The notes under the pieces are model-generated. The model worked only from the letters and a program-made list of their open reading frames with translations. It was not told where the DNA came from and did no database searches. Both the position numbers and the translations under genes were made by a program. From Nymphaea colorata (taxonomy: Eukaryota; Streptophyta; Magnoliopsida; Nymphaeales; Nymphaeaceae): a stretch of 64,000 bases of DNA. This document shows, one piece after another, positions 12,342 to 64,000 of this stretch (positions are counted from its first letter, which is position 1; every line of letters starts with the position of its first letter). Location of the stretch: positions 310,001-374,000 of the forward strand of contig NC_045150.1 of assembly GCF_008831285.2 (NCBI RefSeq), given 5' to 3'.

Positions 12342-12350
12342 CTATAAATA
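12342..12350 (+). promoter_or_regulatory. TATA box of the DUF4228 gene
   Basis: CTATAAATA lies 79 bp before the start codon at 12,429. This implies transcription start near 12,375 and a short leader of about 55 nt ending in 'acaattgctttg'. Confidence 0.6.
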
Positions 12351-12428
12351 TTCATCTGTACTGCCTCTTTCTCTGGCATTCATTTCATACAGAATAGAGG
12401 ACACTGCGTAAACCTAACAATTGCTTTG

Positions 12429-13773: not shown

Positions 13774-16700
13774 ATGGCAGAAGGAAGCGGTGGAACAGGA
13801 AAGGAATTGTGTGCTTCTCATAATGTAGCCAGCGAGTTCAATACGTCAAGTCCATATTACCATTCGGATGGACCAGGTACAGATCTTGTATCTCATCACT
13901 AGAGAAAATTACAATATGTGTCACAAGGCCATGACAATGGCCCTTAGTGCAAAAAACAAGCTTGGCTTTGTGAGTGGGTCAAACTCCAAGCCCGAGAGCC
14001 CTGCACCTCTCAAATTCACATGGGAGCGATGTAACAATCTCGTCTAGTCATGGATCTTGAACTCAATCCACAAAGACTTGACTGTTAGTGTGATCCATGC
14101 CAAGTCCACAGCAGAAGTTTGGAAAGACATTGAGGCCAGATTCACCCAAACGAATGGACCTTGCATATACAAGATACAACAACAACAAATTGTAAATTGC
14201 AGACAACATCAATCATCCATTGCAGTTTACTACACTAAGATGAATGGCTTGTGGGATGAACTAGCGTTATTATATATCGATGTTCTTGACTGTTCTTGCG
14301 GATCCATAAAAGCTGCTACAGATCTTCGTCAACATGACCATCTTATGCAATTTCTAATGGAACACAACGCTAGCTATGCAACTGTTAGAAGTCAACTCTT
14401 ACTAATGGTTTCTTTTTCAACCGTAGCGTACTCTTTTCTCATCCAAGAAGAAAAACAAAGCGACCTCAATATTATACAAAATGAAAAAATACTTCTATTG
14501 TTGCTATTCAATCCCATGATGGAGACAAACATAATCTAATCAAGGACAAGGGAAGACTTCGACTAAAATGTGAGCATTGCGAGAAACTCGGTCACATCAA
14601 GGTAAAGTATTATGTCCTTGTCGATTTTCCTAACAAGTATGGCTCTTCCAATGCACCAACAAGGCCGAAGGTGAACGCCACTGGGTCTCTTGCTATTGAC
14701 TAGCCTCAAACTCAGCTATTTCAAAAGGTTCTTAAGTTCATGGAAAACTCAAGCCGAGTTACCAATGACCCCAAAATAAATCTTTTAGGTAAGCTCTCAT
14801 CATTCATTTCTTGTGCCACTACCAAACAATTATGGATCCTTAACACCTGTGCAATGCACCACATCACCAATGTCATATCAAACTTTGACCAACCCATAGC
14901 CATGAACCATCCACCAATCAGCCTACCCAATGGCTCTAAAACTTCTGTCTCATATCAAGGAGACATGATTATTTCCTCCGCCATTACTCTCAAAAATGTT
15001 TTATATGTCCCAACATTTAGCTTCAATCTCATTTTCATCCCTAAGCTTTGTAGTGACTCAAAATGTGATACAAGTTTAATGAAAACTTTTGTTTCTTGTA
15101 GGATCATCACTCGACGACTATGATTGGAATAGGTAGACTTAAAAATGGTTTGTATGTTCTCAATAAAGAAAGAGTTGCATAACCCCAACCAAACCAATAC
15201 ATTGGCATCTCAGACTTGGGCATGCTTCTAATCCAAAACTTTTTAAATTGTCTCACTTGAAACTCATTGAATCCTATATGATGTTTGATAATTGTGATAT
15301 TTGCTTTGTTGCTAAAAGTACTACTCATGCACCTTTTGTGACATGTGGCGAGATTACTAGACACCTTCGTTAAGTGGCGCACATTATTTCTTAACCATAA
15401 TAGATCATTTTTCTAGGTCTACGTGGATCTATCTTATGAGACAGAAATCTGAAGTCTTTAGCATGATTAAAAATTTTGCCATTCTTATAGAAAATCAATT
15501 TCAAACAATAATTAAAATTATTAGAAGTGACAATGGGACTGAATTTTTTTCTCAAATGCAAAATTTTCTTCAAGAAAAAGGGATCGATCATCAACATAGT
15601 TGTGTTGCTACACCACAACAAAATGGTGTAGTTGAATGCAAACATAGAGATCTTTTAAACATGGCTTGATCATTACTTTTCCAAGCAAATTTTGCTATCA
15701 AATTTTCAGGGGAATGCATTACCACAGCAGCTTATCTACTAAATAGGTTGCCCACAGATAAACATCACAATAAAATGGCCTACAAAGTCTTGTACCAACA
15801 AACCCCCAATTACAAACACCTACGCATGTTTGGATATCTATGTTATGCTCGTAATATTTATAAAAGTCATAAATTTGATATGGGTGCAAGAAGATGTACC
15901 TTTCTTGGATATTCATATGGCCAAGCGGCATATCAAGTTTATGATTTTGAAAACAATGTTTTGTACACCAGTAGAGATGTTCGTTTTTGTGAAAACTATT
16001 TTCCTTACAAAAGTGAGAATGTTACTAATGGAGATGAAATAGTAATCCTTCCCTAACCCTTTAGTGATCAAATCTTAGGTGAGCATGAGATCTTCTCAAA
16101 TCTGATCCAACACCAAGATCTTTCTATTCCTTATCATAACCACCACAATATTCAATCTAGTGATCAACGAGACAACTAAACCCAAGACACTAGTAATGTC
16201 AACCCAGACACCACTAGTGATTCTATCCATCTCGCCTAAGACACAGGCCCAATCACCTTAAGGACTACAAGTATTTTTCTGCCCTACCCGTTTCCAACAA
16301 GTGGTTGACAAGTGATGGTTCGCACACACTAAAAGGTACACATTATCCAATTGCATTATATATTGATGATTCGAATTTCACCTCCAATTATAAATGTTTC
16401 ATGACTACCTTACTTGAGCAACATGGGTCTTTATCTTTTCCCAAGCTATGCACAACCCAAAGCCATGTGCACTGAAATTGATGCATTACAAGACAACCAG
16501 AATTAGATCATCACCAAGCTCCTTCCCGGCAAAACCCCAATTGGTTGCAAATTGATGTTTAAGATCAAATACCAATTTGATGGATCTATTGAAAGATACA
16601 AGGCATGCCTTGTTGCCAAATGATACATTCAAACCGAAGGTGTTGATTACAATGAAACTGTCACCCTTGTTGCCAAAGTTTCTACCATCCGCTGTTTACT

Positions 16701-17912
16701 CGCCATTGCAGCCATTAAAAGGTGGCATCTATTTCAGGTTGATGTTAATAACACATTTCTTCATGGCAACTTGGCAGAAGAGGTATATATACCAGGGTTC
16801 ACTTGACAGGAGGAGAAAGATATGGTATGTCGATTGAACAAATCCATTTATGGGATTAAACAATCGTCACGAAATCGGTCCTCTAAATTGACAACATTTC
16901 TCAAAAGTTTGTGTTTCTCCCAATCAAATGCAAATTATTCCTTACTTTCCAAGACCACGACTCGAGTAAGCATATTTCTAGTGATCTATATAGACGATAT
17001 AATTAATTCAGGCAACGACTTAGTGGGAATCAAGAATCTCAAATTAGTGATGAATGAGAAATTCAAGTTAAATGACTTGGGAAAGCTTAGATATATGCTC
17101 GGCATTGAAGTCGCAATATCTGAAATGGGGATATTTTTATCTCAAGAAAAATATTTTCTCATTATTCTACATGAAACAGGCTATATTGGAGCAAAGCCAT
17201 ATAACTCCTATGAAACAACACTTGAAGTTTGATAATGAAGCAGGAGAGGTCCTCAAAGATACCAGTCACTACAGAAAAATCATTGGTAAGCTCAGTATTG
17301 TACATGCGATACAGATATTAAGTCCATTTATGAGCAAACCTCACATCCCGCATAGAAAAGTCATGAATCATCTTCTAAAGTACATAAAGGAAACGGCGGG
17401 CCATTGAGTATTATTGTCTTCAGAATGTCCTATTTGACTTAAGGCACATTGTGATTCAGACTGGGCATCATGTCCCATGACTCGAACAAGTGGATAATGC
17501 ACTATGATCGGCAACAGTCCCATTACATAGAAAACTAAAAAACAAACAATGGTTTATAGATCTTCCACTGAAGCTTAATACCGATCCAGGGCACTTGTGA
17601 CACGTGAACTTATATGGCTTAAAGCTCTTCTACAACAATATTTTGGGATACCTCACATACAACCAATCACTTTATTTTGCAATAATCAAGTCGTAATGCA
17701 CATAGCAGCCAATCATGTATTTCATGAGCACCAAACATATTGAAATTGACTGCCATATTGTTGAAGATAAAATTTTAAGTGGAGAGATTCAAACTCACTT
17801 TGTATCCTCATCTCAACAAATTGTAAACTTATTCATAAAGTCATTAGGGCGAGAAGTGTTCCAAACATTAAGAAGCAAGTTGGCACTATTTAATCCACGA
17901 AAGCCAACTTGA
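13774..17912 (+). pseudogene. Copia gag-pol polyprotein, degenerate
   Basis: An ATG at 13,774 opens MAEGSGGTGK, but stops interrupt it within about 45 codons. Gag (UBN2-type) continues as SWILNSIHKDLTVSVIHAKS and VWKDIEARF. The zinc knuckle near 14,570 reads CEHCEKLGHIKVKYY, its last Cys lost. Protease near 14,835 reads WILNTCAMHH, with the catalytic Asp replaced by Asn. Integrase keeps GH-x-CDIC zinc ligands (about 15,220-15,310), YFLTIIDHFSRSTWIYL, RSDNGTEF (15,520-15,545) and NGVVECKHR. Reverse transcriptase has [14 protein letters not shown] and the active-site YIDD at 16,987-16,998. RNase H and the C-terminus end near 17,912 with FNPRKPT. Multiple stops and frameshifts mean no functional polyprotein; the element could be mobilised only in trans, if at all. 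Confidence 0.93.
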
Positions 17913-35105: not shown

Positions 35106-37896
35106 ATGGTAAGCGTCTTTTTCTACCCATCCTTCTCTTTCCTCTTTTTCTTGGCTTTCCTTGGTGTGACTTCTCTCGCCTTTTCTTCTTTTGCTTCTTC
35201 AGTTGATCCCTAAGAAGAACAGGAACGAGGTCTACAAGTACCTCTTCCAAGGTAGCTTTTTGTCACTAGTATTTCTTCTTCTCCTTCTCGATTATCTGTT
35301 GCCGAATTCCGGCTTCGTTCGAGCGGTTGCATTTTGATTTGTTTGGAATTTCTGGATCCTTGTTTGGGGATTCTACTCAGAGGGCGTTCTCTACGCGAAG
35401 AAGGATTTCAATCTGCAGAAGCACCCAGAGATCGATGTTCCGAACCTTCAGGTCATCAAGTTGATGCAGAGCTTCAAGTCGAAGGAGTACGTGAGAGAGA
35501 CCTTCTCGTGGATGTACTACTATTGGTACCTCACTAACGATGGCATCGAGTATTTGAGATCCTACTTGAATCTGCCGTCGGAGATTGTCCCCGCGACGTT
35601 GAAGAAATCTGTGAAACCTATGGGAAGGCCCATGGGTGGCCCCGGTGGTGATAGGCCCAGGTCCCTTGATTTGAGTTTCGCGCGTTTTGGTTTTTTCCGG
35701 TTGCTGCGGCAAGGTTTACGGTTTGGTTATGATTCTTTATTTGCTTATTTTGATTGATTACAGAGGCCCTCCACGTTTTGAAGGAGACAGGCCAAGATTT
35801 GGTGATCGGGACGGGTACCGCGGCGGCCCTCGTGGTGGCGAATTTGGCGACAAGGGTGGAGCGCCGCCTGAATTCCAGCCATCCTTCAGGGTAATTACGT
35901 TAACTGATCTTTGAAAACATCGTTCTGTCAGATTCGAAGTTTTATGTTTCGTGGCCATCTTGAAAATGGGTTAGCAATTTGTCTGTTGCATATGAAGCTA
36001 TAATTTATACTTGGAGGAGTCAATTGAATTGGGGGGAATTCCAGTGTCACGAAAGTGGGGCTAAGTGCATTTTATTCTTCGTAGAGGCACGAAATTAATG
36101 TAGTAAAATTAGTTTCCATGAAAATAAATTAGAAGAAATGGGCAATGATTCATATAGTTTGTTTCCTTATTCACGTGTGGTTTTATACATTATTAACCCT
36201 AGGATACACATAATTTTTGAATTAAAAAACCAAACAATGTCTTTTCGGTTAGTGAGATTGTCTTGTTCGAATTTATGACAGAAAATATACGTGAACCACA
36301 AACTAGTTTTGACGGATTTTTTTTCGTAATATACATTTCGAGTACATCTTCAATTCTTTAGCTGGCTTTGCCCTGTCGACCTTTTAATATGCTACTTTTT
36401 TTTTTTAAGATCTTGAATACATAGGCAGTTGCTTCCTCTTATTGCAGGTTCTTGTGGTTTATCTAGTTAATTGTGTTTTCTGCTTGTGTATGTTATTTCT
36501 ATTATCGAGCAGTTATTTGATTGTTTGACCATCTTCACAATGTTTAGCTTCCTAAAAGCTTGATGGGAAATTCAGTTTGTTCGTTTTGTTCCACGTGATT
36601 TAGTTTCTGGAAAATCTTGAAGTTGTTTCACTTGATATGCATAGATCGGAAAAACTATGAGAGTTTGGACCTTTGGTTTTTGTTCTTTCTATTTTAGCTA
36701 TGTTATTTTACGATTTTTTGTTGAGACTGGAGGGTTTTGAATCTACTAGATTAGTATATTGCATTTACTGGCATTGCATAAATATCATTCTCGGGTTTTA
36801 ACCATTTAAGTTTTTCTTGGGTATGGTCTGGCAAAGTTGTTTTTCGTAGGAAAGTTTGCAATTTTCTTTAAAAGGAAAAATGTTAAAAATTAGTTACAAA
36901 TTGAGAAACTAATAAGGAAACATAGAAAATTCACTAGATAAATTACAGAAATGATGTCTTAGGAAGGACAGAAAACGAGTATGAGTAATTCAACTTAACT
37001 TTTAAACTTGAAGCAAAAAATAACGTGAAAAAACACATTAAATTGGTTTTGACAATTTTTTTTTAAAAAGCGTCTGTCTACTTTTTTTCATTTTAATTAA
37101 TTGGAACATAAATAAGGGGTCTTTTTTAAAAAATATGTTCTACTTGTGATAATGATTACTGGTTATTGTGTACTTTTGATGACTATCAGTGCCCCAAGAG
37201 TCGGAAGTCCTTAAACTTGAATATAAGCTGGCCTTGTCTTTCTTAACCATTTGTTTTTGAAGAAAACCTCAAAAGACAGTTCAATGTTTTTGCTGACATG
37301 TATAACCATTAACCAACTATACTTCAAAGAGTAAGACAATGCGAAGGTGTCAACAGGGGCAAGTCATCTTAGCCAACTTGCTGTGTTTTTCCCGCATGCC
37401 TAATTCTAATATTTTGAGCATATTCCAGTAAATGTTTAAATAGAGGGGGTAATTTTAGTACTTAAGAAAGATTTTAGCAAAAACTGGTTTGTAATTTTAA
37501 GATATCAAAAGGAGAAGTTATCATTTGATTGGAAGTTTATGAAAGCTAAGTCATTGTCTTCTACCCTCTGAAAAATTTCAAGTGACAAGTTGAAACCCCT
37601 GGCACACGCCCCTACACCCACCCTTTTTTCTTGATATGGATTCCACACTTGGCAAACCCCACAATCCCTCGAGTCGGATCAGGACCGTTCACTTATTGAG
37701 TCTCACGGGTTAAGATATAATCAATCCACACCAAGACACCGCTGGCTGGTTGAGAATCGGCTGACTTGTGAGGCACAATATGAGTTTTGGTGATATAAAA
37801 CTAAATTAATGATAAAAATTGATTTTGATTCAGTTTTCTTTTTCTTGAATCTGAATGGAAAGACCAAACAAAGGGAGGAGAGGCTGAATTGATTGG

Positions 37897-40999: not shown

Positions 41000-43900
41000 A
41001 AAAAAATGGCAGTCACTCTACCCTAAGGGCTAGAGTGAGCCATGAAAGGAAAACAAACCAAGAGGACACCAAAAGCTTAAGGAACCAAATTTACAGTGTT
41101 TGGGTTAAAAAAGACAAAATATCATGAGCATGTTGTTGTTGCAGAATTTGCACTCTATGAAATAAGTTGCTGTAGTTGTTATGCCGACTCTCGAAGGACC
41201 GACGACCTTCAAACATGGCCCGAAGTCTTCTAATCCAAGGCTTGTTGTTACAAATCAGTAATATATTCTGAAATCTCTCACCACGCTACACCTTGGTCAA
41301 GATGCAAACCATTCGAATCTTTTAACAGAAAAGCAACTACCTATCTACCATTAGAAGCAACAAAGACAACTTGCAGACAAGCTTGACCAGTCAAAATATG
41401 TGGGCACTTATCAGGAACAATCCCCGTAGTCAACCTGTAGGTCTCTCCTGTCCTCAACAGAATTGCTCATGATAGTATAGAAGCCATCAACACAGTCCTG
41501 CCAGATGGCATGAGAGTTTTGTTGAGGAGATTATGTATCTTCTCTATGGATTGCCGAATTGTGCCTACACCATATTCTCCAAAGTATGATGTGAAAACAG
41601 ATTTTCCAGCACTTCATAAGCCAACATCTTTTGAAGCTACAATAGAACCAATGTTTTAACTCCAAGACAATAGTGCGTGGGGTTTGTAACTTCTCTTGAA
41701 TTTAAAAGTAGTGAACCCCAAATTTTTGAAGAATGCGGACAAGAAAACAAAACATGATGAGCAGACTCTTCATCTTTGAGACAAAGAGCACATCAGTTGG
41801 CTAAAGAAATATCACTTTTCTTTTGTCGATCGAAGGTAGGGAGACGATCATTGCAAGCCAGCCAAACATACCACTGCGCTCTAGGTTGAGCCTGAGGAGA
41901 CCAAATCAACTTCCTCCAAGGTTCCTTGTCAAATTTCTGTCTCACCACCTCCCACACGTCAGACATTTTGATGTTAGAGGCAGGAGAGTTATGCCAAAGA
42001 AGGAGGTCTTGCTACGATTTTAAGTTAGGCCTCTCCATACCCACTAGGAAAAGAAAATCCTTGAAGTTGTCAAGAATAGGCATGTCATAGTAAGGACCTG
42101 CTTAATGAATGAGAACTTAAAGGCAGATCTTTCCAAAGAATTCAATTGAGCAATAAGGGGAGCACCACGAATTGAGCCGATGCCAGCAGACCACCTGACT
42201 TGATCTTTGTGATCTTAGATTTGAATCCAGCTTTTCCTAACACCTTTGAAGAACCAAGACTCATTTTTAGGCGCTTTAAGGTCCATAGGCTATGAAAAAA
42301 AAGATATTTCTTCCTCATAAAATTCACCCAAAGGGCATCATCCTAGCAGATGCGCAGCGTGATGCGACCAATACAAGCTTTGTTCCAATCATCAAGCTGC
42401 TTCAACCCAACACCCCCCTCTAACACCGGGCGGCAGAGAGTCTTCCAGGCAACCAAATGTACACCTTTCTTAGTTTCTTGGCTGCCCCAAAAGAAGTTAG
42501 CCATAGTAATTTCAAGTTTATGCTGAATAGACTTATGGAACATAAAGACAGAATACCAGTAGCCAATGAAGCTTAAGAGGTCGTACATTATCAAACAAAG
42601 ATGCTTGCTTAAGAGAGAAGCTTAGAAGACCAAAGTGAAAGTTTCTTTCTACCTTCAGAACTAGAGAGACATAGAAGCTATCCTGCATATTACCTACAAA
42701 AAGGGGAACACCCAAATAATGAAGAGGCAGACAACCTTGCATCCAATCTGATTTGCTGAGGAAAGAGAGAGGAGTTCTTTGTTCCCCAAAGGAATTCACA
42801 TGAGATTTTTGTGGGTTAACACATAACCCATAAGAAAGCTTAAGGGCCTTAAGAGCATGCATAGCCTCATTGTAAGAACGATAGTCACCTCTAGAAAAAA
42901 TAATGTCATCGGCAAAGGTGAGAAGAGAAGGGCAAGCCCCTATCTGAGGGATATAGGGAGGGGTGAAGGAACCATTCTAACGTCTGTACTCTAAATTTCT
43001 AGAGAGTTCTTCCATAACAACAAGGAATAGATATAGAGACATGGGGTCTCCCTGCTTCAGACCTCTACGCATAAAGTGAAAATCTCCTGGAATCCCATCA
43101 ATGAGGACAACAAAAGAAGTAGAGGATACACATGTCATAACTCTGTCAACCCAAGCTATGCTGAAACTCAAGTCGATAAGAGCATTCTTAAGAAAGGCCT
43201 AGCTAACCCTGTCGTAAGCTTTGGAAAAATCAATTTTAAAGCAAATATTACTCTAATGCAGGCCCTCAAACGAGTGAATACATTAATGAGCAAAGATAAT
43301 ATTCCATGTGATTCATCGCCCTGGAAAGAACACACCTTGGTCTTTGCTAATGACTTTCTGCAGGTGATTTTTCATGCGAAAAAAGAGGAACTTAGATATA
43401 ATCTTATACAAGACATTGCATAAGGCAATAGGTTTGAGATCATCAACTTTACAAAGACCTTCTTTTTTGAAAATAAGGGCAATATAATTATGATTAATTT
43501 TTCAATTTCTCCAGTAGAGAGGAAACTATTAATAACCTACAGTAAATAATGACCAACAATGCCCCAATGGTGCTGATTGAAGGAAGCTGGAAAACCATTC
43601 AGGTCCAGAGCACTATTCCATTCCATCGAGAAACCACACGCTTCACTTCGTCAAGAGTGGTCAGGGGAAGTAAGACAACATTATCTTCTAACAACAATAT
43701 AGGGCCATCAGCCGTCTTACTCAGGCAGCAGCCTGAGCCCTCCTCGAAACCAAGAAGAGCACAAAAATTTATTACAGATAGATCTAATGTGGTTCATATC
43801 GTTGATTCTCGTCCCCTCATACTCCAAGGTAGATAAGGAATTCTTCGTTCTACGGCCTTTGACTATTGCTTGGTAGTAAGCCGTATTACGGTTGCCCTCA

Positions 43901-44969
43901 GCGATCCACCTGACATGAGCTCTTTGCCTCCATAAGCTACCTTTATCTTCAACGAATGCTTGCAATATCTTTCAGATTAGAATCTCATGATTCTGGTCAC
44001 TAACAGTAAAAGCTAGTTCAAGAGATTGGACCTTGTCATGTTCATCCCATAAAAGCTTTGGTACGAAGCGAAATGTCGCCCACACAACTCCTAGCCCAAC
44101 TAAGAAGACTAAATCGAGTGAGTTTCAATTTCTTGATCACCCTCACCAGGGGGCAGCTAAAAGCTCAGGAACTCCAAGCCTCTTGAACAAGGTAATTACA
44201 CTGAGGTCTTCTGGCACAGAATTGAAAAATATCTGAACTGAAAAAACAGATTAGCAGAGTTTGGAGTGAAACAAGTAGACACTTTGAGAACGGAGTGATC
44301 ATAAGTCAATCTAGGAAGGATCTGCAAATTAATAGAGCTTCCCCATTGAGCCTTCCATACATTAAAACCCCAATCTAACCTGCACAAAATTTCACTCGCA
44401 CTTTGTCTGTTGTTGCTCCAAGTAAACCTGTGATCAGGGTTAGACAACGGAAACAAATGGCAGTTCGAAACAAACCTATTAAAAGAAGAGCAGGAGTTCA
44501 GGTTTGTTGGGCGGCCGGTTTTGTCTGAGCTATCCAGCATAGCATTGAAATCCCCAGTCAAAAGAGTTGGGCCTTGGAAATCAGATAAGATGTTCTACAA
44601 AACTGTAAGCTCCCAAGCTCTTTCACTATAACGCGGAGGAGGGTAGGTACCCCCAGCTAGGAACTTGACATGAGACTGTTTGTCAGTGACCTCTAGAAGG
44701 ATCTAATACCTATTCATATTAAAGACCAAAACAAAGAATTTTTGTGGTTTCCAACCACAGAAGATACGTACAATACTATCACACAAATCAGCATTGGACA
44801 AGGTAGCATAAGAACCAAGTAGACCAAAGTTAATGTGAAGCCGATCAACATGAATGAGAGTATCAAAAATAAAAAAACTATCAATAGCCTCATGCTGGAC
44901 AGTGAGAAGCAAGTCGTGCCTAGCAAAGTTTCTAGCTAAGCCACGAATATTCCATGCTAAACACTTCAT
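41000..44969 (-). pseudogene. LINE ORF2: endonuclease and reverse transcriptase
   Basis: Starts MKCLAWNIRGLARNFARHD at 44,969, the apurinic endonuclease (EEP) N-terminus. It continues with LTGDFNAMLDSSDKTGRP near 44,560 and FTWSNNRQSASEILCRLD, both EEP motifs. The linker includes WIAEGNRNTAYYQ (43,900). Reverse transcriptase motifs are RRGLKQGDPMSLYLF near 43,060 and the active-site TFADDIIFSRGD at 42,917-42,885. Then come GLCVNPQKSHV and the thumb/connection WKTLCRPVLEGGVGL. A zf-RVT segment, CSLCLKDEESAHHV, lies near 41,790-41,755. The C-terminus near 41,250 has WIRRLRAMFEGR. No RNase H domain is recognisable. The frame is broken many times, so this copy cannot make active enzyme. Confidence 0.9.
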
Positions 44970-45109
44970 TGGAGAGGGGAGGAAACAGATACCTGGTCGG
45001 AAGGATTACCTTCACCGCCACTCGTAGGAAAGTCATTGGTGTGAGATGGTGGGGCGGTGTCTGAGGGGGCCTCTACCAGGCAATAGCTCACGTGCTTACT
45101 TACGCTTTT

Positions 45110-46453
45110 CTACTGGCGCCGCTGGTTCCGGATCGTCAAAACTGTGATTTGCAGTATCCTGAGCAAATTTTCTATGGCCAGACAGTCTGCTGCCCCTCCC
45201 GCGACTATGAGTGACACCGTTGCTGCAAACAAAAGTTGAAAATTACCAGCTTGTGGATCAACATTATGGACATCCTCTTGGCCATCACGGGGAGCGTTAA
45301 CAATGAGCTGAGAATTGAGCTTAGAGGATGATTTGAATGAAAAGCCCGTGGGTATTTCAGTAGGCAAACTTTCGATCTGATCGAAGGGGGTTAACCATGT
45401 TGGCCCGGTTCTTAGTTGCATCCCTGATAATGTCTTTGCCCTTAACTCTCCTTGTAGTGATATCGTTACTAGGTTCATGGTGGGATTGATGCAGACGAAC
45501 TCTATCAGTATGATCCTTCTGTAGGTAATCCCTTTTGTCCTTCCACATTAGGCCCTTTGCTGGAGTTGGAAGCCTTCGTTGAGTCTTTGCCTTTGGCCGC
45601 CTCATGAAGATAAGTCCCTTGATTGCAGGATTCACGCTTGGGGCATTTATCGGGTGTATGATAGTTGACACTGCAAAACCTGAAAAAACGTAATCTCCCG
45701 TCATAGACTAAGGGTTGGGTGATGGTGTGACTATCATTTAACACAAACTGAAATTAAGGGGGAAGTGGGGCACCCAGAGGAAGTTCAACTATGATTCTGG
45801 CAAAACCCCCTTGATTAATGTCTCTGATTTGAGTGTCTGTTTCCAAAAGATCACCCTGAAGACCTTTGGCTATGCTGTTGAAGATTTACGTAGTCCACAT
45901 ATTCGGAGGCAGATTTGGGAGTCGAATCCAAAGAGGGGCAGAGAGCTTAGGCAGCATGGTGAGTGGTTTTCCTAGCTGCCAATAGTGGGTAACAAGAGAC
46001 CTACGTAGTTGTTGTTCATCCTCAACCTGAATGAAAAATGTGCCACTAGTGAGAATGGTGAACTTCAGGTAGGCTTTCCCTACCTATAGACTGGTGAGTT
46101 CAAAAAATACAAAGGAGAAATTGGTGCACCAATTAGAGGAAGAACCTTTTGGCCGAGCCAAAGCTGGCCATTGGAACGACCAGTCCATCTCTTCATATGC
46201 TTCTTTAGGGATGTTGATTTTTAATATGGTATCCTGAATCTCCACCTCCAAAGGATGCTCTGGTAGGCTGTCAGCAGTAACCAAAGAAGCCCATGAGTGT
46301 TGTCCCTTCCATATGACAGCCAAGGGCCATACGACAGCCAAGGGAAGATGGTGAGGGGGGGGCAGGAGGTGGAAGATCCCCTTTATCAAATGGAGAGGAT
46401 TCAGATCCTTGCAGAGGAGGGAGGTCCTCGTTCGATGCCATAGGCATCTTCAT
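45110..46453 (-). pseudogene. LINE ORF1: DUF4283/CCHC nucleic-acid-binding protein
   Basis: The first ATG at 46,453 gives MKMPMASNEDLPPLQG, then a Pro-rich head. The DUF4283-like domain continues in changed frames with LRRSLVTHYWQLGKPL, APLWIRLPNM and FARIIVELPLG. A reduced zinc knuckle follows near 45,660 (RFCSVNYHTPDKCPKR), where one Cys and the central His are displaced relative to the plant L1 CCHC. In plant L1 elements this protein coats the element RNA. Stops and frameshifts throughout. Confidence 0.8.
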
Positions 46454-53815: not shown

Positions 53816-53828
53816 GAAAGCGCCGATC
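53816..53828. repeat. left target-site duplication of the SINE
   Basis: GAAAGCGCCGATC, identical to 54,060-54,072. Confidence 0.9.
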
Positions 53829-54059
53829 GGGCATAGCGTAGCTGGTTGAGCTAGGGGCCTGTACTAATGCAGGTCTCTAGTTCGATTCCCGTGGGCGTTA
53901 TGTTCCTGTGTCTTAAGGCGGTAGGGCGCGGCATCTAAGTTGAAGGGTGCACCGTTGCTATCGCTGACACCGACGCAGCTCAAGACCCCGGAGGCAGGGG
54001 GAATGGGGGGGCCTTCGGGCCTTTTTCGAGCGGTGGGATTAATACCCCTTGCTCACCCG
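53829..54059 (+). mobile_element. tRNA-derived SINE
   Basis: A 231-bp GC-rich insert in AT-rich DNA, flanked by a perfect 13-bp duplication. The head resembles a tRNA. An A-box-like TAGCGTAGCTGG lies about 5 nt from the start, and a B box AGTTCGATTCC about 50 nt in (53,879-53,889), the spacing of internal RNA polymerase III promoters. The body has TAGGGCGCGGCATCTAAG and a 'gggccttcgggccttttt' hairpin-plus-T stretch (54,009-54,026), and it ends CTTGCTCACCCG without a long A or T tail. General style is that of plant Au-like SINEs, but I cannot assign the family. It depends on LINE enzymes for movement. Confidence 0.85.
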
Positions 54060-54072
54060 GAAAGCGCCGATC
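54060..54072. repeat. right target-site duplication of the SINE
   Basis: GAAAGCGCCGATC, 13/13 identical to the left copy. Confidence 0.9.
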
Positions 54073-54699
54073 TCATCTTTAATTGAACGACAATTTGTCA
54101 CAGCCAAATGATAGTTAACCATCTTTTATCGTCTTAATTTTAGGTTTCATCTTTCACTTTATTGTGAAGGAGGGTTTGTGATGCTCCTCCAAAATTTTCA
54201 TATGCTCGGTATTATAGACACCAATATCTAAGTAGCATAAGGTTTCGTATTAAGGTCCGGATCCCTACTAACAAGCCAAAACCCAATTAGCTATGCCAAG
54301 ATGAGTCTGGTTGCCTAAACTGGAATTTTGTCCGACCCTATCTATGTTCGTTCTCATTCTTTTTAATTCAACCTTCAATCCAGTCCAGATAAACGGTTTG
54401 GATATGGATCTACTAACATAGGATGACATTCTATATTTTTTGGTTTTGTTTTGAATCCAAATGCTTGGTAGATGATTAGGATTTTCCCATATCAAGTTCT
54501 TCTTGATTGATTCGTCCATGTTTTGAATTGACTCAGGACTTGGTCTAACACAAGCCCCATTAAATGAAATGAAAATCTGTGACTATGATCCAAAGGTTGA
54601 AATGAATTGATTAAATTAAGTCCCATTACATCTAGACAACATTGCTTTTTTTAACCATGAGAAATCGTTGCAATTGCTGGAAATAATAGGTCTACTAAC
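54073..54699. other. intergenic between SINE and the tandem array
   Basis: No gene or element recognised. The frame at 54,268-54,519 has no family signature. Confidence 0.4.
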
Positions 54700-55273
54700 A
54701 GCACAAAAATAAAGGGTAAGTTGAGATCTGTCATAGAATTGGTGCTTCGGTGTATTTAATTGATACTTTTCTTTTTTTTCATAAATATCTATTACAATTA
54801 ACTATAAGTACATAATATTCTAGGTTATTAGAATATGAGTGCCAAGAATGTCAATTTAAACTAACTAAAAATTAGTGTGCCCACATCTTCCTTTCATGGG
54901 AAATATATGTATGAGAATCTTCATATTCTTGTCCATCCCTTACTTTTAAACCAATTTCTTCTCAATGATTTTCACATGCTGTTTGACTATTTGTCATGAT
55001 TGTTAGAAAAAGTTCAATATGGGCAAGATCCAGACCGTAATAATCTGTACCAAGTCTGCCATGGACTGGACTGGCTTTCACTATTGGTCATACTTGTTCA
55101 TAAAGTTTCAATACCGGTTCAATAATGCTTTAGACCAATTCATAACATTATCCCAAGCGGGTCCATAAAGTTCATATCAGTTTAGGGTCTCTATGCATCA
55201 GTTCACAGACTGATTTAATGGCCTTTTGAAATTATTGCAGAGTACTTTTTAACCAGATTGTTTCTTTTACAAG

Positions 55274-55504
55274 AATTTTCCATGTGCCGGTCAGTGGAAA
55301 TTGTCTCATGATGCACCCAAAGGCCATAATGTATCTGGTCGGAGGCTGCTGCTAGATGAAGTCATCTTTTGTCGGTTCGATTTCTATGGGTTTTATGTCT
55401 CTATGCCAAATGGAATGGGAGCGAGCGTTGTTCTATCTTACATAAATTGGGTCTACACCAGGTACCGCCACAGCCCTAAACCCTATGCTTCAGCTCTCAT
55501 TTAA
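55274..55504 (+). pseudogene. exon-like block 1, unit A; unknown family
   Basis: An open stretch of 76 codons beginning just after a pyrimidine tract and AG (tttcttttacaag). It reads NFPCAGQWKLSHDAPKGHNV, then a DEVIF-x2-FDFYGFYVSMPNGM segment, then INWVYTRYRHSPKPYA, to a TAA at 55,502. Unit B matches it protein-wise at GHNV, EVI, FDF, FY, PNGM, I-W-YT-x-RH-x-PK. The conservation of these residues across diverged copies suggests former coding sequence. I do not recognise the family. It could be an exon of a live gene or a pseudogene; with no complete gene model, I list it as probably broken. Confidence 0.4.
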
Positions 55505-56744
55505 TGTGGAAAGTATCGATGTCAGACAAAGATCTTAATCAATGCAATCCATGGGTTCATTTGGAGCATATACATAAATGTGCCAAACAGGTCATACATG
55601 AAAGCTAAAAAAGTTTGTAAATCTTAGGAAAAAAAGAGCTGGAAGCAGATATTTATTAATTCAAAACTTCATAAGCAACTTCGGATCTGATCCCTTATTC
55701 AATGAGCAGCTGCTATATATATTAGAAAAATATTGTCTGTCTAACACAGCAGCATATTATAATGTATGTTAAAAAGCAACTAAAGCTTCTTGTTTTTCTC
55801 AATAGTTTTAGATTCTCGTGATGAATATACAGTTTCACCCTGCATTTTCATGTTTTCCGTCTGTTTTTTTTTTTTTTAATGTTTTGTTCAACCATTCTAA
55901 CTTGCATTGCTTTTCAATCACAGAATTGTCCTTTGATCAACACGTCTCCTTCCCTGCGAGTATCATCTGTCTCGGTTTCCATACCGTTTCGGTTTGTTGG
56001 CAGCATCGGTTTATTATTATTTTCCTTTTTTTTTTCAAAATTAATTAACAAATAATAAAAAATATTATCGGCTTGAGTTGATTCAGTTTGCAGCAGATCC
56101 TATGTGTATCAGCAAATGATAAACTGATATTGACAACACCATCCCTATTCCCTGCCTTTTCACAAATGAGGCGAAACAACATGAAAAAAAAAGGACACTC
56201 GCTTCAAGATTGTTGTTATTCCTGCTTTTACTTCTTGTACCGTCCTTTTCACATCGCTCTACCTTATGCCAATTATTGGTGGATGAGTGTCTCTTACTTC
56301 TTTTTTTTTTGGTTTTTGTTTCACAAGATCTTCATGGCCACAAAGGTGCGTGTATATGCTGCAATTTTAGATGCATAAGCGAGAACAAATTAGGAGTAGT
56401 CAATTCATGGAAAATTAGTAAAAAAAACCCAACAAACCAATTGGGTAAGGGAAAAAAACTAGCCCATTAAAATTAATTCTAAAAGTACTATTTTTATAGT
56501 CTAACCTTATAGGTATGATCTTAGAGTGATTGGTTGTGAAACATATATTAAGTTGGTTTTTTTTTTATATTTTTTTAGTAATCTAAAAATGAACGTATCT
56601 TGTAGCATCAAAATTTTGATGATAAAAAAAGATGAATTTTTTTCATTGAAATAACTTGAACTAGGACATGATTTATATAAAATTAGTGTTCGTAAGAACA
56701 TTAGACAGTTCACATTTTGTCTAAGAAACTATTTAACATAAATT

Positions 56745-56784
<40 letters not shown>

Positions 56785-56791
56785 GAAGACA

Positions 56792-56958
56792 AGATCAGCA
56801 CAAAGCATCCGAGGCGGATCTGTCAGTGCACCTTAAGGAACTTGAAAGAAAAACTAGGGTTTTAAAGGCTGGTCTGCTTCTTAATAGTAGTCCCTTAGGA
56901 GTGTCCGGTGGGTCCATTAATGGATCTTACTTTGTGAGCAGTAGATCGATGGAGTGAG
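56792..56958 (+). pseudogene. exon-like block 2, unit A; unknown family
   Basis: Frame DQHKASEADLSVHLKELER then KTRVL and SSPLGVSGGSING, ending at a TGA near 56,958. The charged stretch has a coiled-coil look. The same frame is open in unit C and broken by a 2-bp insertion in unit B. It starts right after a (TA)n and an AG. In units B and C the coding-like text is followed by GTGGGT or GTGAGT, possible donors. Family unknown. Confidence 0.4.
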
Positions 56959-57330
56959 ATTCAAGTTCAATTGGCCCTTGGGGCCCAGGGTTCAGGGTAG
57001 TCAAGCCGCGCTTTGTTCGGGTTTTATGGGTGTCAGAGTCCCTGCACAAGTGAAGACAAACCTAAACGCCAAGGGGCGTTTGATAACTACTGGTTTTTAG
57101 GTTGATTCATAGACAGGATACAACATGCTTCTGTCGATAAGACAAAATATCTACGTAAAATCTTTGGTTAGACTTAGGAACCATACTGTAGAATTCTCAT
57201 TTTACTTTTTGCTTTAGGAAATGTCTGATCTAAAACTAGAGAAAAAAAGATTTAATTTCAGATTCATAAGGAGGAAGTAGAAGGAGCCCTTTGAGTGTGC
57301 CTTACAGCATTTGATAGAATTATAAAGCAC

Positions 57331-58234
57331 ATTATTTTAAAGTACTTGAAGTATTGAGCAAAAATCAACTCAATATTTCAAAATTAAATTATCTGAACCG
57401 CTTATTATAACAAAGTAGCTGATGGGACAAGTCTACCTGTCTCAAACATGACTGAGATTTAGCTATTTGAGTTTGTTCAGCTCATTTCTCAGCCCTAAGT
57501 ACCACTCAACATGCAATATAGTGCAAATTGTCTGTACACATTAAAAGGACATCTAATAGTTTCGGACTCTCAGCTCAGTCTCCAGTCAAACAGTTGAGTT
57601 GGTAGAAAAGATTTCCAACTTATAAAAGAAAAAGATTAACTGTGAAATAGTTTCATATGTAAAACATGGACCTAACAGATATGTGAGTGCATCCTATGTT
57701 ATGCGGCTAATATGAGAAGGCATGTTCCTACTCTTATAATTTTCATAATATTATAAGTGAATTTTATGTTACCTTGGAATTGAATTGATCAATCTCCCAA
57801 CTCGACGAATTGGATGATTCAGCTGAGTTGGTCGTGTGTCAGCAAAAATATTAAAATAGAAATTGTTTGACTTTTTTTTAAAATAAAATAAGAATGGCAT
57901 ATGGCATTCTTGAATCAGCAACCTAATCAAATCGGTTTTACCACTAACTGGTTTAGGCTGATTATGATAATATTGCTTTTAGACTGTGTATTGTGTCCCC
58001 CATTGTTTTTATTTCTTTTTTGTGAAAATTGTTTGAATTTTCAAGGGAGCCCTAAGGTCCAATTTGAAATTCAGAAAACGATACATATTATGAACCGATT
58101 GAGGAAAAATATTATGTATGAATGGTTAATTCTAGTTAAAAACTTTCTCAATTTTAATGCTTTAATGTTTTATTTATTTTCAGGTAAGGCAGAGGTTTAT
58201 GATACACTACCCATTTCCCCTTCCCCATGGCTCA
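57331..58234. other. spacer between array units A and B
   Basis: No gene found. The frame 57,901-58,356 runs into a dispersed repeat and is Phe/Leu-rich; not supported. Confidence 0.4.
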
Positions 58235-58402
58235 TGGGTCCAAGATTGTTTTTAAAATTTTTAAATTTTGGCATTGGGAGAAATATCATTTTTCAAATTT
58301 TTTATATAAGACAAGTAAATTTTTTTAAAAATTTACATGTATTTTTTTTTTTTTGAGGTCGAGCCATGGCCCTTGCAGGCTCTACCCTGGCTTCGCCCCT
58401 GG
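58235..58402. repeat. dispersed repeat, GGTGGAGCCAG family fragment
   Basis: Resembles 480-700 (GRNIIFQ-coding string) and ends CTGGCTTCGCCCCTGG, the complement-type end of the family described at 51,060. Confidence 0.5.
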
Positions 58403-59216
58403 TCACCATGTACCTTCCTTCAACTCTTTGATCAGATATCCGAAAAAGCATATGTAGTTAAGAGTATATTCGATTTGAATCCATTTCATTGACAGCCCTA
58501 CTCATATTAGCTGCTTTTTTAGGAGGAGGGTCACATTGACTAAGTGCTGATACAATGTGAATGGGCTGGTGCAGGCCAATATGCATTCGGTTATTGTAAA
58601 CATTCGCCTCAAGATCAAAAGAGGACTTCCCATTTGAAAAATGCTTGAAAAACAGTCTAAAAATAAAGGTAAGTTGAAATCTGTCATAGAATTGGTGCCT
58701 TGGTGCATTTAATTGATACTTCTTTTTTATCATAAAGATATCTATTATAATTATATATTATAATTATACATATATTGACATAATATTCTAAGTTATTCAA
58801 ATATGAATGCAAAGAATGTTGGTTTAAACTAAATGAAAGTTAGTTTACCCATCCATCCTTTTCTGAGGAATATACGTATGAGAATCTTCATATTCTTATT
58901 TCTCCCTTATTTTTTAAACGAATTTATTCTCAATGTTTTTCACACGCTGTTTGACTATTTGTCATACTTGTTTGAAAAGTTCAATATTGACAAGGTCCAG
59001 ACCGTAATATCTGAGCTAAGTCTGCCATGGATTGGACTGGCTTTCACTATATTGTTCATACTTGTTCATAAAGTTTCAATACCGGTTCAATGATGTTTGA
59101 GAGCGTTCTCCCAAGTGGGTCCATAAAGTTCATATCAGTTCCCAAACTGATTATGGTCTTTTGAAATTACTGCGGAGTACTTTTTAACTAGATTGCTTCT
59201 TTTACATGAATTTTTC

Positions 59217-59416
59217 AATTGTCGCCTAGTGGAAATTATCTCATGACAAAGTATACGTATACCAAAGGCCATAATGTATTTAGTTGGACTGGTGAAGTCA
59301 TCCGTCGTCCGTTCGACTTCGATAGCTTCTATGCTTTTGTGCCAAATGGAATGAATGTTGTATTATTTGATATACATTGGATCTACACCAAACACCGCCA
59401 CGACCCTAAACACTAG
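59217..59416 (+). pseudogene. exon-like block 1, unit B
   Basis: Reads KGHNVFSWTGEVIRRPFDFD, SFYAFVPNGM and IHWIYTKHRHDPKH, then TAG. Relative to unit A, the AG before the block is TG, CAG has become TAG near the start, and an extra tract shifts the frame, so this copy looks damaged at its 5' side. Confidence 0.4.
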
Positions 59417-59447
59417 GGCTAAAGGAGGGGGAGGGGCCCCTTTCAAA

Positions 59448-59494
<47 letters not shown>

Positions 59495-59626
59495 ATTTTT
59501 TTTTTAATTTTTACTTAGTCTATATACAAATTTTTGAGAAATTTATTTTTTGGGCTCCGAAACTATACTTGGGTCTCCCTAGTGAAAAAGTCTTGGCTCC
59601 ACCCCTAAGGCCTCCACATAAATTTC
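59410..59626. repeat. TIR repeat with internal (TA)n inserted in unit B
   Basis: Left GGGCTAAAGGAGGGGGAGGG, a (TA)n of about 44 bp at 59,448-59,491, and right end TTGGCTCCACCCCTAAGG. Absent from the same place in unit A, so it entered after the unit duplicated. Same family as 51,060. Confidence 0.55.
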
Positions 59627-60841
59627 AATCTTACATATCAGATGTCTTGATCAATGAATTCCATGCATGGGTACATGAGGAAAATATACATACAAGCCAA
59701 ACCAGGTCATACATGAAAGCTAAAGGTTTGTAAATCTTAGTGGCAAGAGCTGGAAGAAACCAAGCAGATATTTCTTATTTTGAAACTTCATAAGCTGCTT
59801 TTTATCTGTTTACTAATCCAATATTATACTTCACATCTGCTCCCCTATTCATAGAGCAGCAACATAATATAATGTATGTTATATGCAACTAAAGCTTGTT
59901 ATTTCTGGAACAAGGTGATGTGGGTAAGCTTGTCCAAACCAAACTGAGTCAAGCAATTAGAAGTGTCCTATTTGATGACTAATTTGTTTTTTCCAGTTTT
60001 AGTTGATCTTTCCATTTCTCCCTTTGACCAACACTGTCTTGGTTTCCGTATCGTCTCATTTTGTTGGCAGTATCGGTTTATTATTATTTTCTTTTTTTTT
60101 TAAAAAAATCAATTAATTAAAAATATTTGATAAATAAAAAGTGCTTAATATTGTCAAATACATATGGGGCTAGGGCTGATTCAGCTTGCAGCAGATCCAA
60201 TGTGAATCTGCTAATAAGAAACTGACGTTGACAACACCATCCCCTGCTTTATAATATATAAGGGGAAACAACGAGAAAGAACAAACGACTGGTTTCTAGA
60301 TTCTTGTTCTTCCTGCTTTTACTTCTTGTGCCGTCCATTTCAGAGCCCTTACTCATTTATTGATGGATGAGTGTCTCTCATTTCTCTCTCTCTCTCTCTC
60401 TCTTACGAGATCTACATGGCCACAAGTATACGCTGTAATTTTACATGCATAAGTGAGAACAAAGTTGGAGTCATTCACCGATAATTGGTAAAAGACAGAC
60501 CACTTGAGGAAGGGACAAAAACCAGTCCCACTAAAATGAATTATGAAAGTACTTTTTTGACAATCTAGCCTGATATTTGATGAATATGATCTCAAGAGTG
60601 ATGTGGTGAGAAACATATGTTAAGTTCATTTTTTTTTACAATTGAAAAATGAACTACTCTTGTTACATCAAAATCTTTAACTTGAACTAAAACATGATTT
60701 ATGTAAAACTGGTGTTTATAAACACATTAGGAGGTCAACATTTTGTTTAAAACACTTTTTTAACACAAATTTAAGAGGCCTGGTTTTTATCTTTTACCTA
60801 AGTGTTGTGGCATTTACGGATATATCTATATATATATAGAC

Positions 60842-60975
60842 AAGATCAGCAGAAAGCATCCGAGGCCGATCTGTCGGTGTGTACCTTAAGGAGCTTGAAA
60901 GGAAAACTAGGGTTCTAGAGGCAGATCAGGTTCTAGGTAGTAGTCCCTTAGGAGTGTCTGGTGGGTCCATTTTAA
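60842..60975 (+). pseudogene. exon-like block 2, unit B, frameshifted
   Basis: Same sequence as the unit A and C blocks, but a 2-bp GT insertion (CTGTCGGTGTGTACC) shifts the frame after KASEADLSV. Beyond it, the old frame resumes as LKELERKTRVLEADQVLG and SSPLGVSGG. Confidence 0.45.
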
Positions 60976-61340
60976 GTTATCCCCTGGCTTGAGTAATGAA
61001 TCTTGCTTTCTGAACAGTTCTTTGATGGAGTGAGGTTCAAGATCAATTGGCTCTTGGGGCCCAGGGTTCAGGGTAGTCGAGGCGCCTTTTGTTTGGCTTT
61101 TGTGGGTGGCAGAGTCCTTTTATCGGTGGTTTCTGTACAAGTGAATACAAATATAAACACCGAGGGGGTGTTTGATAACTTCAGATTTTAGATTCATAGA
61201 CAGAATACGACATACTTTGGTCGATATGACAAAATATCTATGCAAAAACTTTGGTTAAATGAATTAATGTAAGGTCCTCATGTAAAACTCTCATTTTACT
61301 TTTTGCACTAAGTTAAAGTTTGATCTAAAACTAGAGAAAA

Positions 61341-62507
61341 AAGTTAATCTCAAATTCATTGCGTGGTAGAAGGCCGAAGCCCCTACCCAATCTCTCATCT
61401 GATAGGATACAAAGTTTGTTGTCGTTACCTCATGATGTCGCGCCCCTACCACCTTTAACTTGATTGTCAGTGACCCTCCTTTTTGCAGCATAGAAAGTTG
61501 GTGCCTCAAGGATTCATAATGAAAACTGACCGCCTACCAATTTCCAGCTCGTCGATTGCTCCAAGCCACTTGGAAGTCATTTATACGAGTACTTGAAGCA
61601 CCATTTGTATTGGTGAATGTAAGGCCCATGTCAGAAATATCAGGAATATGTGGCTCTAGAATTATAAGAGAAAAAAAGGTCATGTATAGAAAATTTCCTT
61701 ATTCTTATGCTAATTTTGTTTTGTTAATTGAAGACATAATCTCCAATATAAATTTTAGGTAACAAACTTCACTGCCCTACTCTTTTACAAGGAAAATTCT
61801 CCTTGGGCCCTCTGCTTCAATCTTTAATCCCTAAGAAAGAAATCTAATGTCTTCGAATATGTTGGTTAGGGACCTATTTTTCTTACTATTGCGAAATAAG
61901 AGTTTGGGCTTATTATATTTAAATTAGATGACCCCAACTAATGAAATGACAGCTAGTAGAAGCAATGGTGGAGCTACAAATTTTATTTGGAGGTGCACTA
62001 ATTTAAATGCTCTCTTGTCTTTAGGGGCCCTAATTAGTAGCGAAAACTGGAAAATTCACTAGAGGGACACTTGTTTAAAAATATTCAATTCTAGTGAGAC
62101 ATTTAAAATAAATATTTAAGATTCCCATTTAAAAATAAAGAACTTTTAAGAGATTGGTGTAGGCTACCGTCCACACCAGTCACAATGTGGCTATGCCCCT
62201 AGCCCTAATGCATGTAAATATGCAAACTAAGGCATTATCATTAAAATAACAAATTTACGGGGATGGTGTGGCCAACAGACCACATCCACCTATATGTGGC
62301 TTCATCACTGAAATACAAGCGATATTTCTCTTCTGATTTTTGCCTTGTATTCTTTGCCTCATGTTATTTCTCCCTTTTGAATAAAGTACTATTCCTTTGC
62401 CTAAATAGTTTTAGAGACTCTCACCTGCACAGCTTGAGTTGCGTGTGCCGTATGTAGTTAGAGTAGGGAGACTTTTTGGTAATTTTTTTCTTAAAAGGTC
62501 CTTTCTA

Positions 62508-62547
<40 letters not shown>

Positions 62548-62593
62548 TTCTTTTTATTTTTGTCTTCACACAAAGTTTTCCTTTTTTTCTTTT
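61341..62593. other. spacer between array units B and C
   Basis: 61,965-62,213 carries 'ggtggagctac' and 'gtggctatgcccctag' ends, another GGTGGAGCCAG-family fragment. A T-run of 31 bp is at 62,510-62,540. Short frames (61,556-61,762; 62,263-62,457) are not recognised. Confidence 0.4.
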
Positions 62594-62639
62594 TTGTGTG
62601 AACTAGGGGTATATTTTGTTATAACCATATTGCTGAATG

Positions 62640-62823
62640 AAAATTTCGTGCACCAGTATGACACATATAACAAAGTTCTCACCTTGTATCCTGATCATGT
62701 TTGGTATGCGAAGCGCCGTAGTGTATCTATCTGGTTGAATGAATTGATGCTCGATGAAGACATTCAATTCTATTTCCTTGGTTTCTGTGCCTTCATGCCA
62801 AATGAAATTAGTGTGCTGTATTA
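62640..62823 (+). pseudogene. exon-like block 1, unit C
   Basis: Reads HQYDTYNKVLTLYPDHVWYA, ISIWLNELMLDEDIQ-like text and FCAFMPNEI, then a TAA. Only the FYAFVPNGM-like core clearly matches A and B, so the upstream part has diverged or is different. Confidence 0.35.
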
Positions 62824-63797
62824 ACTGACATACATTGGATGTATACCAGTGCTCGCATTTCAAGCAGAAAGTGCCAGTATCAAACAAGGATCTCAATCGT
62901 ATATAGCAGATCCCTTAAAAGATGAATGCCATTGGAGGGTTCATTAGGAAAATATACATACAAGCCAAACCAGGTCATACATGAAAGCTAAGAGTTTGTA
63001 AATCTTAGTAGAAAAAGCAAGAAACAGCGAAGCATATATTTATTAATTCGAAACATCATAAGCTGCTTCTTATCGGTTTACTAATTCATAGAGCAGCTCC
63101 TACGTTAGAAAAATATTGTATGTCAGAACACAACATAATATAATGTATGTTATATGCATCTAAAGCTTGTTATCTCTGTAACAAGATGATGTGGGAAATC
63201 TTGTTCAAACCAAACTGAGTCCAGCAATTAAACTTGTTTTCCGGTTTTAGTTGATCTTTCCATTTCTTCCCTTTGTTTCATTCAGTTACATAATTGTCCT
63301 CCGCGAGTATTATCTGTCTCGGTTTCCACAACATTTCAATTTGTTGGCAGTATCGGGTTATTCTTATTTTCCTTTTTTTTTTCAAAATTAATTAATGAAT
63401 AATAAGAAATATTTGATAAATAAAAAGTGCTTAATATTGTGAGATACATATGGGCTAGAGCTGACTCAGTTGGCAGCAGATCCGATGCGTATCAGCTAAA
63501 TAAGAAACTGATATTGACAACGCCATCCCCTGCTTTCTGACAGATACAACGAGAGAGAAAAGAAGACTGGTCTCCAGATTCTTGTTCGCTTACTTCTTCT
63601 ACTGTCCATTTCATATCATGGTAACCATGGCTCTTCCTGCTTTTACTTCTTGTACTGTCTAATTTCATCAACCAGTGGGTCTACCTTATGCCAATTATTG
63701 GTGGATGAGTGTCACTTTTTTTTTCCCTTCATGAGACCTTCATAGCCACAAAGGGGCAAGTACATGCTGTAATTTTTAAGTGCATGAGAATTTGGAG

Positions 63798-63837
<40 letters not shown>

Positions 63838-63840
63838 GAA

Positions 63841-63971
63841 AAGATCAACACAAAGCATCGGAGGCCGATATGCCGGTAAACTTTAAGGAGCTTGAAAGGA
63901 AAACTAGGGTATTGGAGGGAGATCAGATTCTCAGTAGTAGCCCCTTGGGAGTGTGTGGTGAGTCCATTTGA
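63841..63971 (+). pseudogene. exon-like block 2, unit C
   Basis: Open frame KDQHKASEADMPVNFKELER, KTRVLEGDQILSSSPLGVCG, then GTGAGTCC, which is a consensus splice donor at the end of the conserved text. The (TA)n sits immediately upstream. Confidence 0.4.
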
Positions 63972-64000
63972 ACTTGCCCCCTGGCTTAAGTTATGGATCT

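What the first reader, a model, noticed from the sequence alone, without database searches (positions are those of the whole stretch)
54700..64000. Three diverged tandem copies of an unrecognised 3-4 kb unit with two conserved exon-like blocks
Units A (54.7 kb), B (58.65 kb) and C (62.6 kb, leaving the window) are collinear. Each has two blocks whose translations are related: a PNGM/WIYT-x-RH-x-PK block and a KASEADLSV/LKELERKTRVLE block. I recognise neither as a known domain. The copies could be a local gene family, decaying duplicates of one gene, or an unnamed large tandem repeat.
Basis: partly seen in the sequence, partly recalled or inferred. Interest (0 to 1): 0.7.

Follow-up and report, generated by a model that had tools for sequence, protein, structure and literature searches.

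The report
Decayed triplicate of plastid-and-transposon-derived DNA
Three tandem copies really are there in this water-lily-like plant chromosome, but they look like an old, decaying duplication of a patchwork of stray chloroplast DNA and mobile elements rather than a new gene family, so the finding is ordinary.

Summary
The three collinear copies are real: A 54697-57270, B 58651-61360, C 62725-64191, running 191 bases past the window. Pairs differ by about 0.28-0.30 substitutions per site over 1262 shared columns. No fourth copy was found in the next 30 kb. The gene reading fails. The unit is a patchwork. Its left edge lies inside a piece of plastid DNA. A and B carry a dispersed MITE beside a TA microsatellite. 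Block 1 (PNGM/WIYT) of A resembles the head of a tRNA-derived SINE, outscoring all 400 shuffles against a SINE 1.5 kb away; B and C do so only weakly. Block 1 does not diverge more slowly than the dead plastid piece (K2P 0.33 against 0.21). Block 2 (KASEADLSV/LKELERKTRVLE) was found only in these three copies of a 408-Mb genome. It shows a weak synonymous excess between A and C, but B is frameshifted, the 3' ends differ and no relative was found. Best reading: a local tandem triplication of intergenic DNA, decaying without visible coding constraint. A small private exon in block 2 is not excluded (about 8%).

The parts
54697..57270 (+). copy A (part shared with B); A-C homology goes on at 57292-57533
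58651..61360 (+). copy B
62725..64000 (+). copy C, 5'-truncated, continuing to 64191 beyond the window
54556..54970 (-). nuclear plastid DNA (accD-psaI-ycf4 region) in A, reaching 141 bases left of the unit edge; strand is that of the plastid genes
   Evidence: weak PSI_8 match at 54669-54719
58659..58933 (-). same plastid piece in B, 85% identical to plastid
56406..56746 (+). dispersed MITE in A, right end lost into (TA)n (ends read by eye)
60484..60823 (+). same MITE in B, inverted-repeat arms 60488-60535 and 60770-60817 (outer ends read by eye)
63798..63835 (+). (AT)n in C at the place where A and B carry the MITE
58252..58401 (.). dispersed repeat of about 150 bp in the A-B spacer

Best explanation
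A stretch of intergenic DNA that already held a plastid insertion and an old SINE-like sequence was tandemly triplicated. The three copies then decayed independently without visible coding constraint. Further mobile elements and deletions opened the spacers and made them look unlike each other. Shown: the copies, the plastid piece, the MITE, one duplication edge inside the plastid piece, indels off the triplet. Supported but weaker: block 1 as a SINE head (strong in A only). Inferred: unequal exchange or replication slippage as the copying step, and absence of function.
For: Plastid piece: A 54556-54970 and B 58659-58933 match plastome-sized contig C783 at 79.6% and 84.8%. Plastid homology in A starts 141 bases left of the unit edge, so the edge cuts the insertion. 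It gives a neutral yardstick: A-B K2P 0.206 there (0.148-0.265) against 0.253 (0.230-0.275) for the whole unit; of 271 columns 209 are the same in plastid, A and B, 14 shared by A and B against plastid, 21 changed in A only, 24 in B only, 3 all different. MITE: the 1718-base query that holds it had 1157 first-look candidates, 40 of them scored; 39 listed places outside the three copies match its MITE part. Block 1: A against the SINE at 53823 scores 54 against a shuffle maximum of 41, 0 of 400; that SINE has 589 first-look candidates, 40 scored: itself and 39 others at 95-98%. Pfam at E up to 1 on the six frames of 54.6-64 kb: only one family, PSI_8 at E 0.33, which lies in the plastid piece. 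PDB at E up to 10: none for block 2, one match for block 1 (E 0.16).
Against: Block 2: A-C differences are 14 synonymous and 13 non-synonymous (7-8 synonymous expected, simulated P 0.0008 or 0.0048 by starting copy), with the frame open in both. A-B divergence is not uniform (0.13 to 0.33 by segment). B and C block 1 resemble SINE heads only weakly (best 2 of 400 and 1 of 400 shuffles; B against L042 264 of 400). No family of close block 1 copies was found in the genome.
Confidence: 0.87

Rival explanations
1. Tandem pseudogenes of one small lineage-specific gene, of which block 2 is the last recognisable exon; the rest is intron and flank.
For: Block 2 open in A and C, synonymous excess A-C 14 of 27, P 0.0008 or 0.0048; KELERKTRVL identical in all three copies.
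Against: That excess is one of the two highest of 120 frame-by-block comparisons (20 gap-free blocks of at least 60 bases and 65% identity, six frames each; the other is the reverse strand of the same block); the 3' half alone is weaker (P 0.06-0.13); B is frameshifted; only three copies in the genome and no parent gene (3 of 3 candidates scored, 3 of 3); no relative in genome contigs or viral contigs, which are not plant collections.
Confidence: 0.08
2. An unnamed transposable element family whose copies happen to lie in tandem.
For: A and B share both edges within a few bases; the unit contains dispersed repeats.
Against: Outside the plastid and MITE parts the answered searches listed no clear copies elsewhere; but one search also missed copy C, so copies as diverged as C would escape it, and one search scored only 40 of 1157 candidates. 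The left edge lies inside plastid DNA. No terminal repeats or target-site duplications were seen by eye at the edges printed.
Confidence: 0.03
3. A conserved non-coding RNA or regulatory tandem array.
For: Stretch 54986-55328 has A-B K2P of only 0.136. One minus-strand fold in B (60151-60270) beats its shuffles, z -2.68, 0 of 200.
Against: The homologous folds in C and A do not (z -1.30, 19 of 200; z +1.45, 191 of 200); the other five of the eight folds tested have z between -0.83 and +0.68. No Rfam match at gathering thresholds in the window; three hits to bacterial families at E up to 1, all below their gathering scores. Stretch 54986-55328 has no BLAST match in C.
Confidence: 0.02

Closest known systems
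Nuclear plastid DNA (NUPT)
   Same: An 18.0-Mb contig carries a decayed piece of the accD-psaI-ycf4 plastid region (gene names recalled); tandemly duplicated NUPTs are reported as occasional (PMC7037861, passages seen).
   Different: Only about 270-415 bp of a unit of 2.6 kb or more is plastid-derived.
tRNA-derived plant SINE
   Same: Block 1 of A aligns with the SINE at 53823 from the A-box-like through the B-box-like site (box names recalled).
   Different: Much more decayed; not found among the 40 scored members of the young family at 53823; B and C barely recognisable.
Microsatellite-associated MITEs (MuTAnT in Medicago, PMC4486113; pineapple, PMC8449440; TE arrays in guayule and rice, PMC5907723; search listing with starts of abstracts only)
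   Same: Inverted-repeat ends, many copies; all four copies read have (AT)n, (GA)n or (CA)n beside them.
   Different: Superfamily and target duplication not determined.

Membership tests
NUPT | DNA homologous to the plastome, located in a nuclear chromosome | tested here: met
   79.6% and 84.8% to a 159,842-base contig with an inverted repeat; the window lies in an 18.0-Mb contig (47,500 of the 159,842 letters were withheld as N).
tRNA-derived SINE (block 1) | Pol III A box and B box about 30-45 bases apart | tested here: inconclusive
   Both sites visible in copy A, but the motif was written after seeing the alignment, B and C do not match it, and ARAGORN found no tRNA-like gene in the window.
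tRNA-derived SINE (block 1) | High copy number of the same family | tested here: not met
   no other genome match to the block 1 part of A by DNA (copy C was missed too); 6 of 6 candidates scored, A, two pieces of B and three weak matches elsewhere with stops (E 0.005, 0.014, 0.086). So it is called SINE-like, not a member of a named family.
tRNA-derived SINE (block 1) | 3' tail and target-site duplication | not tested
   Too decayed to define the ends.
MITE (56406-56746, 60484-60823) | Short element with terminal inverted repeats and many copies | tested here: met
   arms 48 nt, 71% complementary in B; 39 listed places outside the three copies.
MITE (56406-56746, 60484-60823) | Target-site duplication | tested here: inconclusive
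   Flanks are microsatellites, which would hide a short duplication.
Protein-coding gene family | Open frames kept in all copies with purifying selection | tested here: not met
   block 1 shows no synonymous excess (two short A-B pieces of 42 and 45 bases, P 0.14 and 0.93) and has a stop in B; block 2 is frameshifted in B.
Protein-coding gene family | Transcripts | not testable with these tools
   No RNA data.

The most novel reading that the evidence does not exclude
Block 2 was, until recently, an exon of a small gene born only in this water-lily lineage and triplicated with its introns, now dying in B and perhaps alive in A or C.
Probability: 0.08. Interest if true: 0.35.

Novelty: new member of a known kind. 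Interest (0 to 1): 0.1.

Why it matters
Little biological weight. It is a clean example of how translated SINE-like and intergenic DNA can look like exons, and of how a plastid insertion can act as a neutral clock inside a duplicated segment.

Tried and rejected
Protein reading of block 1: Pfam, PDB (one match E 0.16) and the own-genome protein search gave no gene. The three weak genome matches (L041-L043) led to the SINE reading. They were chosen because they matched block 1, so only the comparison with the SINE at 53823 is free of that bias. L042 and L043 are 82% alike over 1.9 kb and are not independent. All 12 copy-by-SINE comparisons, number of 400 shuffles reaching the observed score: A 0, 0, 0, 7 (against W53823, L042, L043, L041); B 35, 264, 2, 12; C 65, 148, 1, 2.

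Parent gene of block 2: none in the own genome (3 of 3 candidates are A, C, B), none in genome contigs or viral contigs, none in PDB.

RNA reading: Rfam gave nothing. In the folding scan some of the best folds lie at homologous places in two copies; eight such stretches tested against shuffles gave one of note, in B only.

LTR, Helitron or inverted-repeat ends of the whole unit: not seen by eye at the edges printed. Order of the duplications: unresolved; bootstrap closest pair AC 290, BC 184, AB 26 of 500, although A and B alone share the MITE, so either C lost it or the copies arose almost together. An earlier alignment with the MITE left in and C cut at the window edge gave AB 0.295, AC 0.306, BC 0.258 over 1031 columns.

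Plasmid search for the unit: no match.
Full report
What was checked. Self-comparison of 50-64 kb against the whole window gave three collinear copies in one orientation. A and B share 54697-57270 and 58651-61360; 2341 aligned columns give K2P 0.253. C starts at 62725 by BLAST, lacks the first 630 bases or so of A, and ends at window coordinate 64191 once the adjacent chromosome is added; no fourth copy was found in C13:374001-404000 at E 1e-5. Spacers look unrelated at first, but 57292-57533 recurs after C at 64622-64862 with 87% identity, and 57568-57730 at 66294-66451 with 75%. So the original unit was probably longer than the A-B overlap, and copies lost different parts. Three short B-spacer matches near 65.7-66.2 kb are in mixed orientation and may be dispersed repeats.

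Where it is. The own genome has 407,766,735 bases in 783 contigs, and the window is C13:310001-374000. Size and contig number fit Nymphaea colorata (409 Mb, 804 scaffolds, 14 pseudo-chromosomes; PMC7015852, passages seen). This species name is an inference.

Plastid DNA in the unit. The first 789 bases of A matched 24 places, 24 of 24 candidates scored: A, B and 22 others that match only within the first 274 bases. This search missed copy C, so it does not reach copies as diverged as C. Six of the 22 were fetched and compared; they are 99% alike over 3.3 kb, and the one translated (L003) carries long frames that I recognise from memory as ycf4 and accD. One of the six lies in C783, 159,842 bases with an inverted repeat (7,342 bases of it visible), taken as the plastome (47,500 letters withheld). 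The window and the next 30 kb match it only at 54556-54970 and 58659-58933 (E 1e-4). A sub-threshold Pfam hit to photosystem I subunit VIII (PSI_8, E 0.33) falls at 54669-54719 by my conversion and agrees with psaI. Since plastid homology in A starts 141 bases before the unit does, the duplication edge lies inside the insertion: the plastid DNA came first. Of 271 three-way columns, 209 are the same, 14 changes are shared by A and B, 21 are private to A, 24 private to B, and 3 differ in all.

Mobile elements in the unit. 56406-56746 in A and 60484-60823 in B are copies of a short element with terminal inverted repeats. The query holding it had 1157 first-look candidates, 40 scored, and 39 listed places outside the three copies match its MITE part at 71-78%. 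The four copies read have microsatellites beside them. C has only (AT)n there. The spacer holds a second dispersed repeat at 58252-58401 (query with 1290 candidates, 40 scored; 40 of the 42 matches are to this repeat).

Block 1. Its translation misleads. In A the DNA runs from an A-box-like to a B-box-like site and aligns with the SINE at 53823-54090: score 54, against at most 41 in 400 shuffles. That SINE has 589 first-look candidates, 40 scored; the 39 others are 95-98% identical. Copies B and C are weaker: B stands out only against L043 (2 of 400), C against L043 and L041 (1 and 2 of 400); all 12 comparisons are in Tried and rejected. Block 1 diverges at 0.33 (0.21-0.47) between A and B, not slower than the plastid piece at 0.206 (0.148-0.265). 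Codon tests on two short pieces show no constraint (P 0.14 and 0.93), and B has a stop. ARAGORN found no tRNA in the window, as expected if the head is decayed.

Block 2. It was found only in A, B and C in the own genome, by protein (3 of 3 candidates) and by DNA (3 of 3). Between A and C, 14 of 27 differences are synonymous; random placement gives 7-8 (P 0.0048 with A as start, 0.0008 with C). This is the one result that favours coding.

RNA. Eight 120-base stretches with strong folds or their homologues were folded against 200 shuffles each: one, in B on the minus strand, stands out (z -2.68), while the same place in C (z -1.30) and A (z +1.45) does not. Rfam gave no match at gathering thresholds.

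Conclusion. A local triplication of intergenic DNA with a plastid insertion, an old SINE-like sequence and a MITE, decaying without visible coding constraint. The copying step (unequal exchange or replication slippage) is inferred from the tandem same-strand layout. Pairwise distances over 1262 shared columns are nearly equal (AB 0.303, AC 0.280, BC 0.285), so the copies probably arose close together in time.

Noticed in passing
window 53829-54063 (+): A young tRNA-derived SINE; 589 first-look candidates in the genome, 40 scored, the 39 others at 95-98% identity. No paper in the library held all three terms short interspersed nuclear element, tRNA-derived and water lily.
   Followed up: partly
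L032-L035 and window 60484-60823: High-copy MITE family; the four copies read lie beside (AT)n, (GA)n or (CA)n microsatellites, reminiscent of microsatellite-associated MITEs of other plants.
   Followed up: partly
window 14048-17229 (+): Broken Copia-type retrotransposon with gag, SH3-like and RVT_2 pieces.
   Followed up: no
window 42536-45987 (-): Probable broken LINE: reverse transcriptase and endonuclease pieces below the curated cut-offs and a DUF4283 piece above it.
   Followed up: no
window 12348-12944 and 35338-35754 (+): Frames with a PADRE domain and an S10_plectin domain (ribosomal protein eS10), both above the curated cut-offs: probably exons of ordinary genes.
   Followed up: no
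G000:C1:7091825-7099914: Two stretches 8 kb apart, 82% alike over 1.9 kb, with a SINE-like head: perhaps another local duplication.
   Followed up: no
window 60151-60270 (-): A fold in copy B that beats all 200 shuffles (z -2.68), not kept in A.
   Followed up: partly
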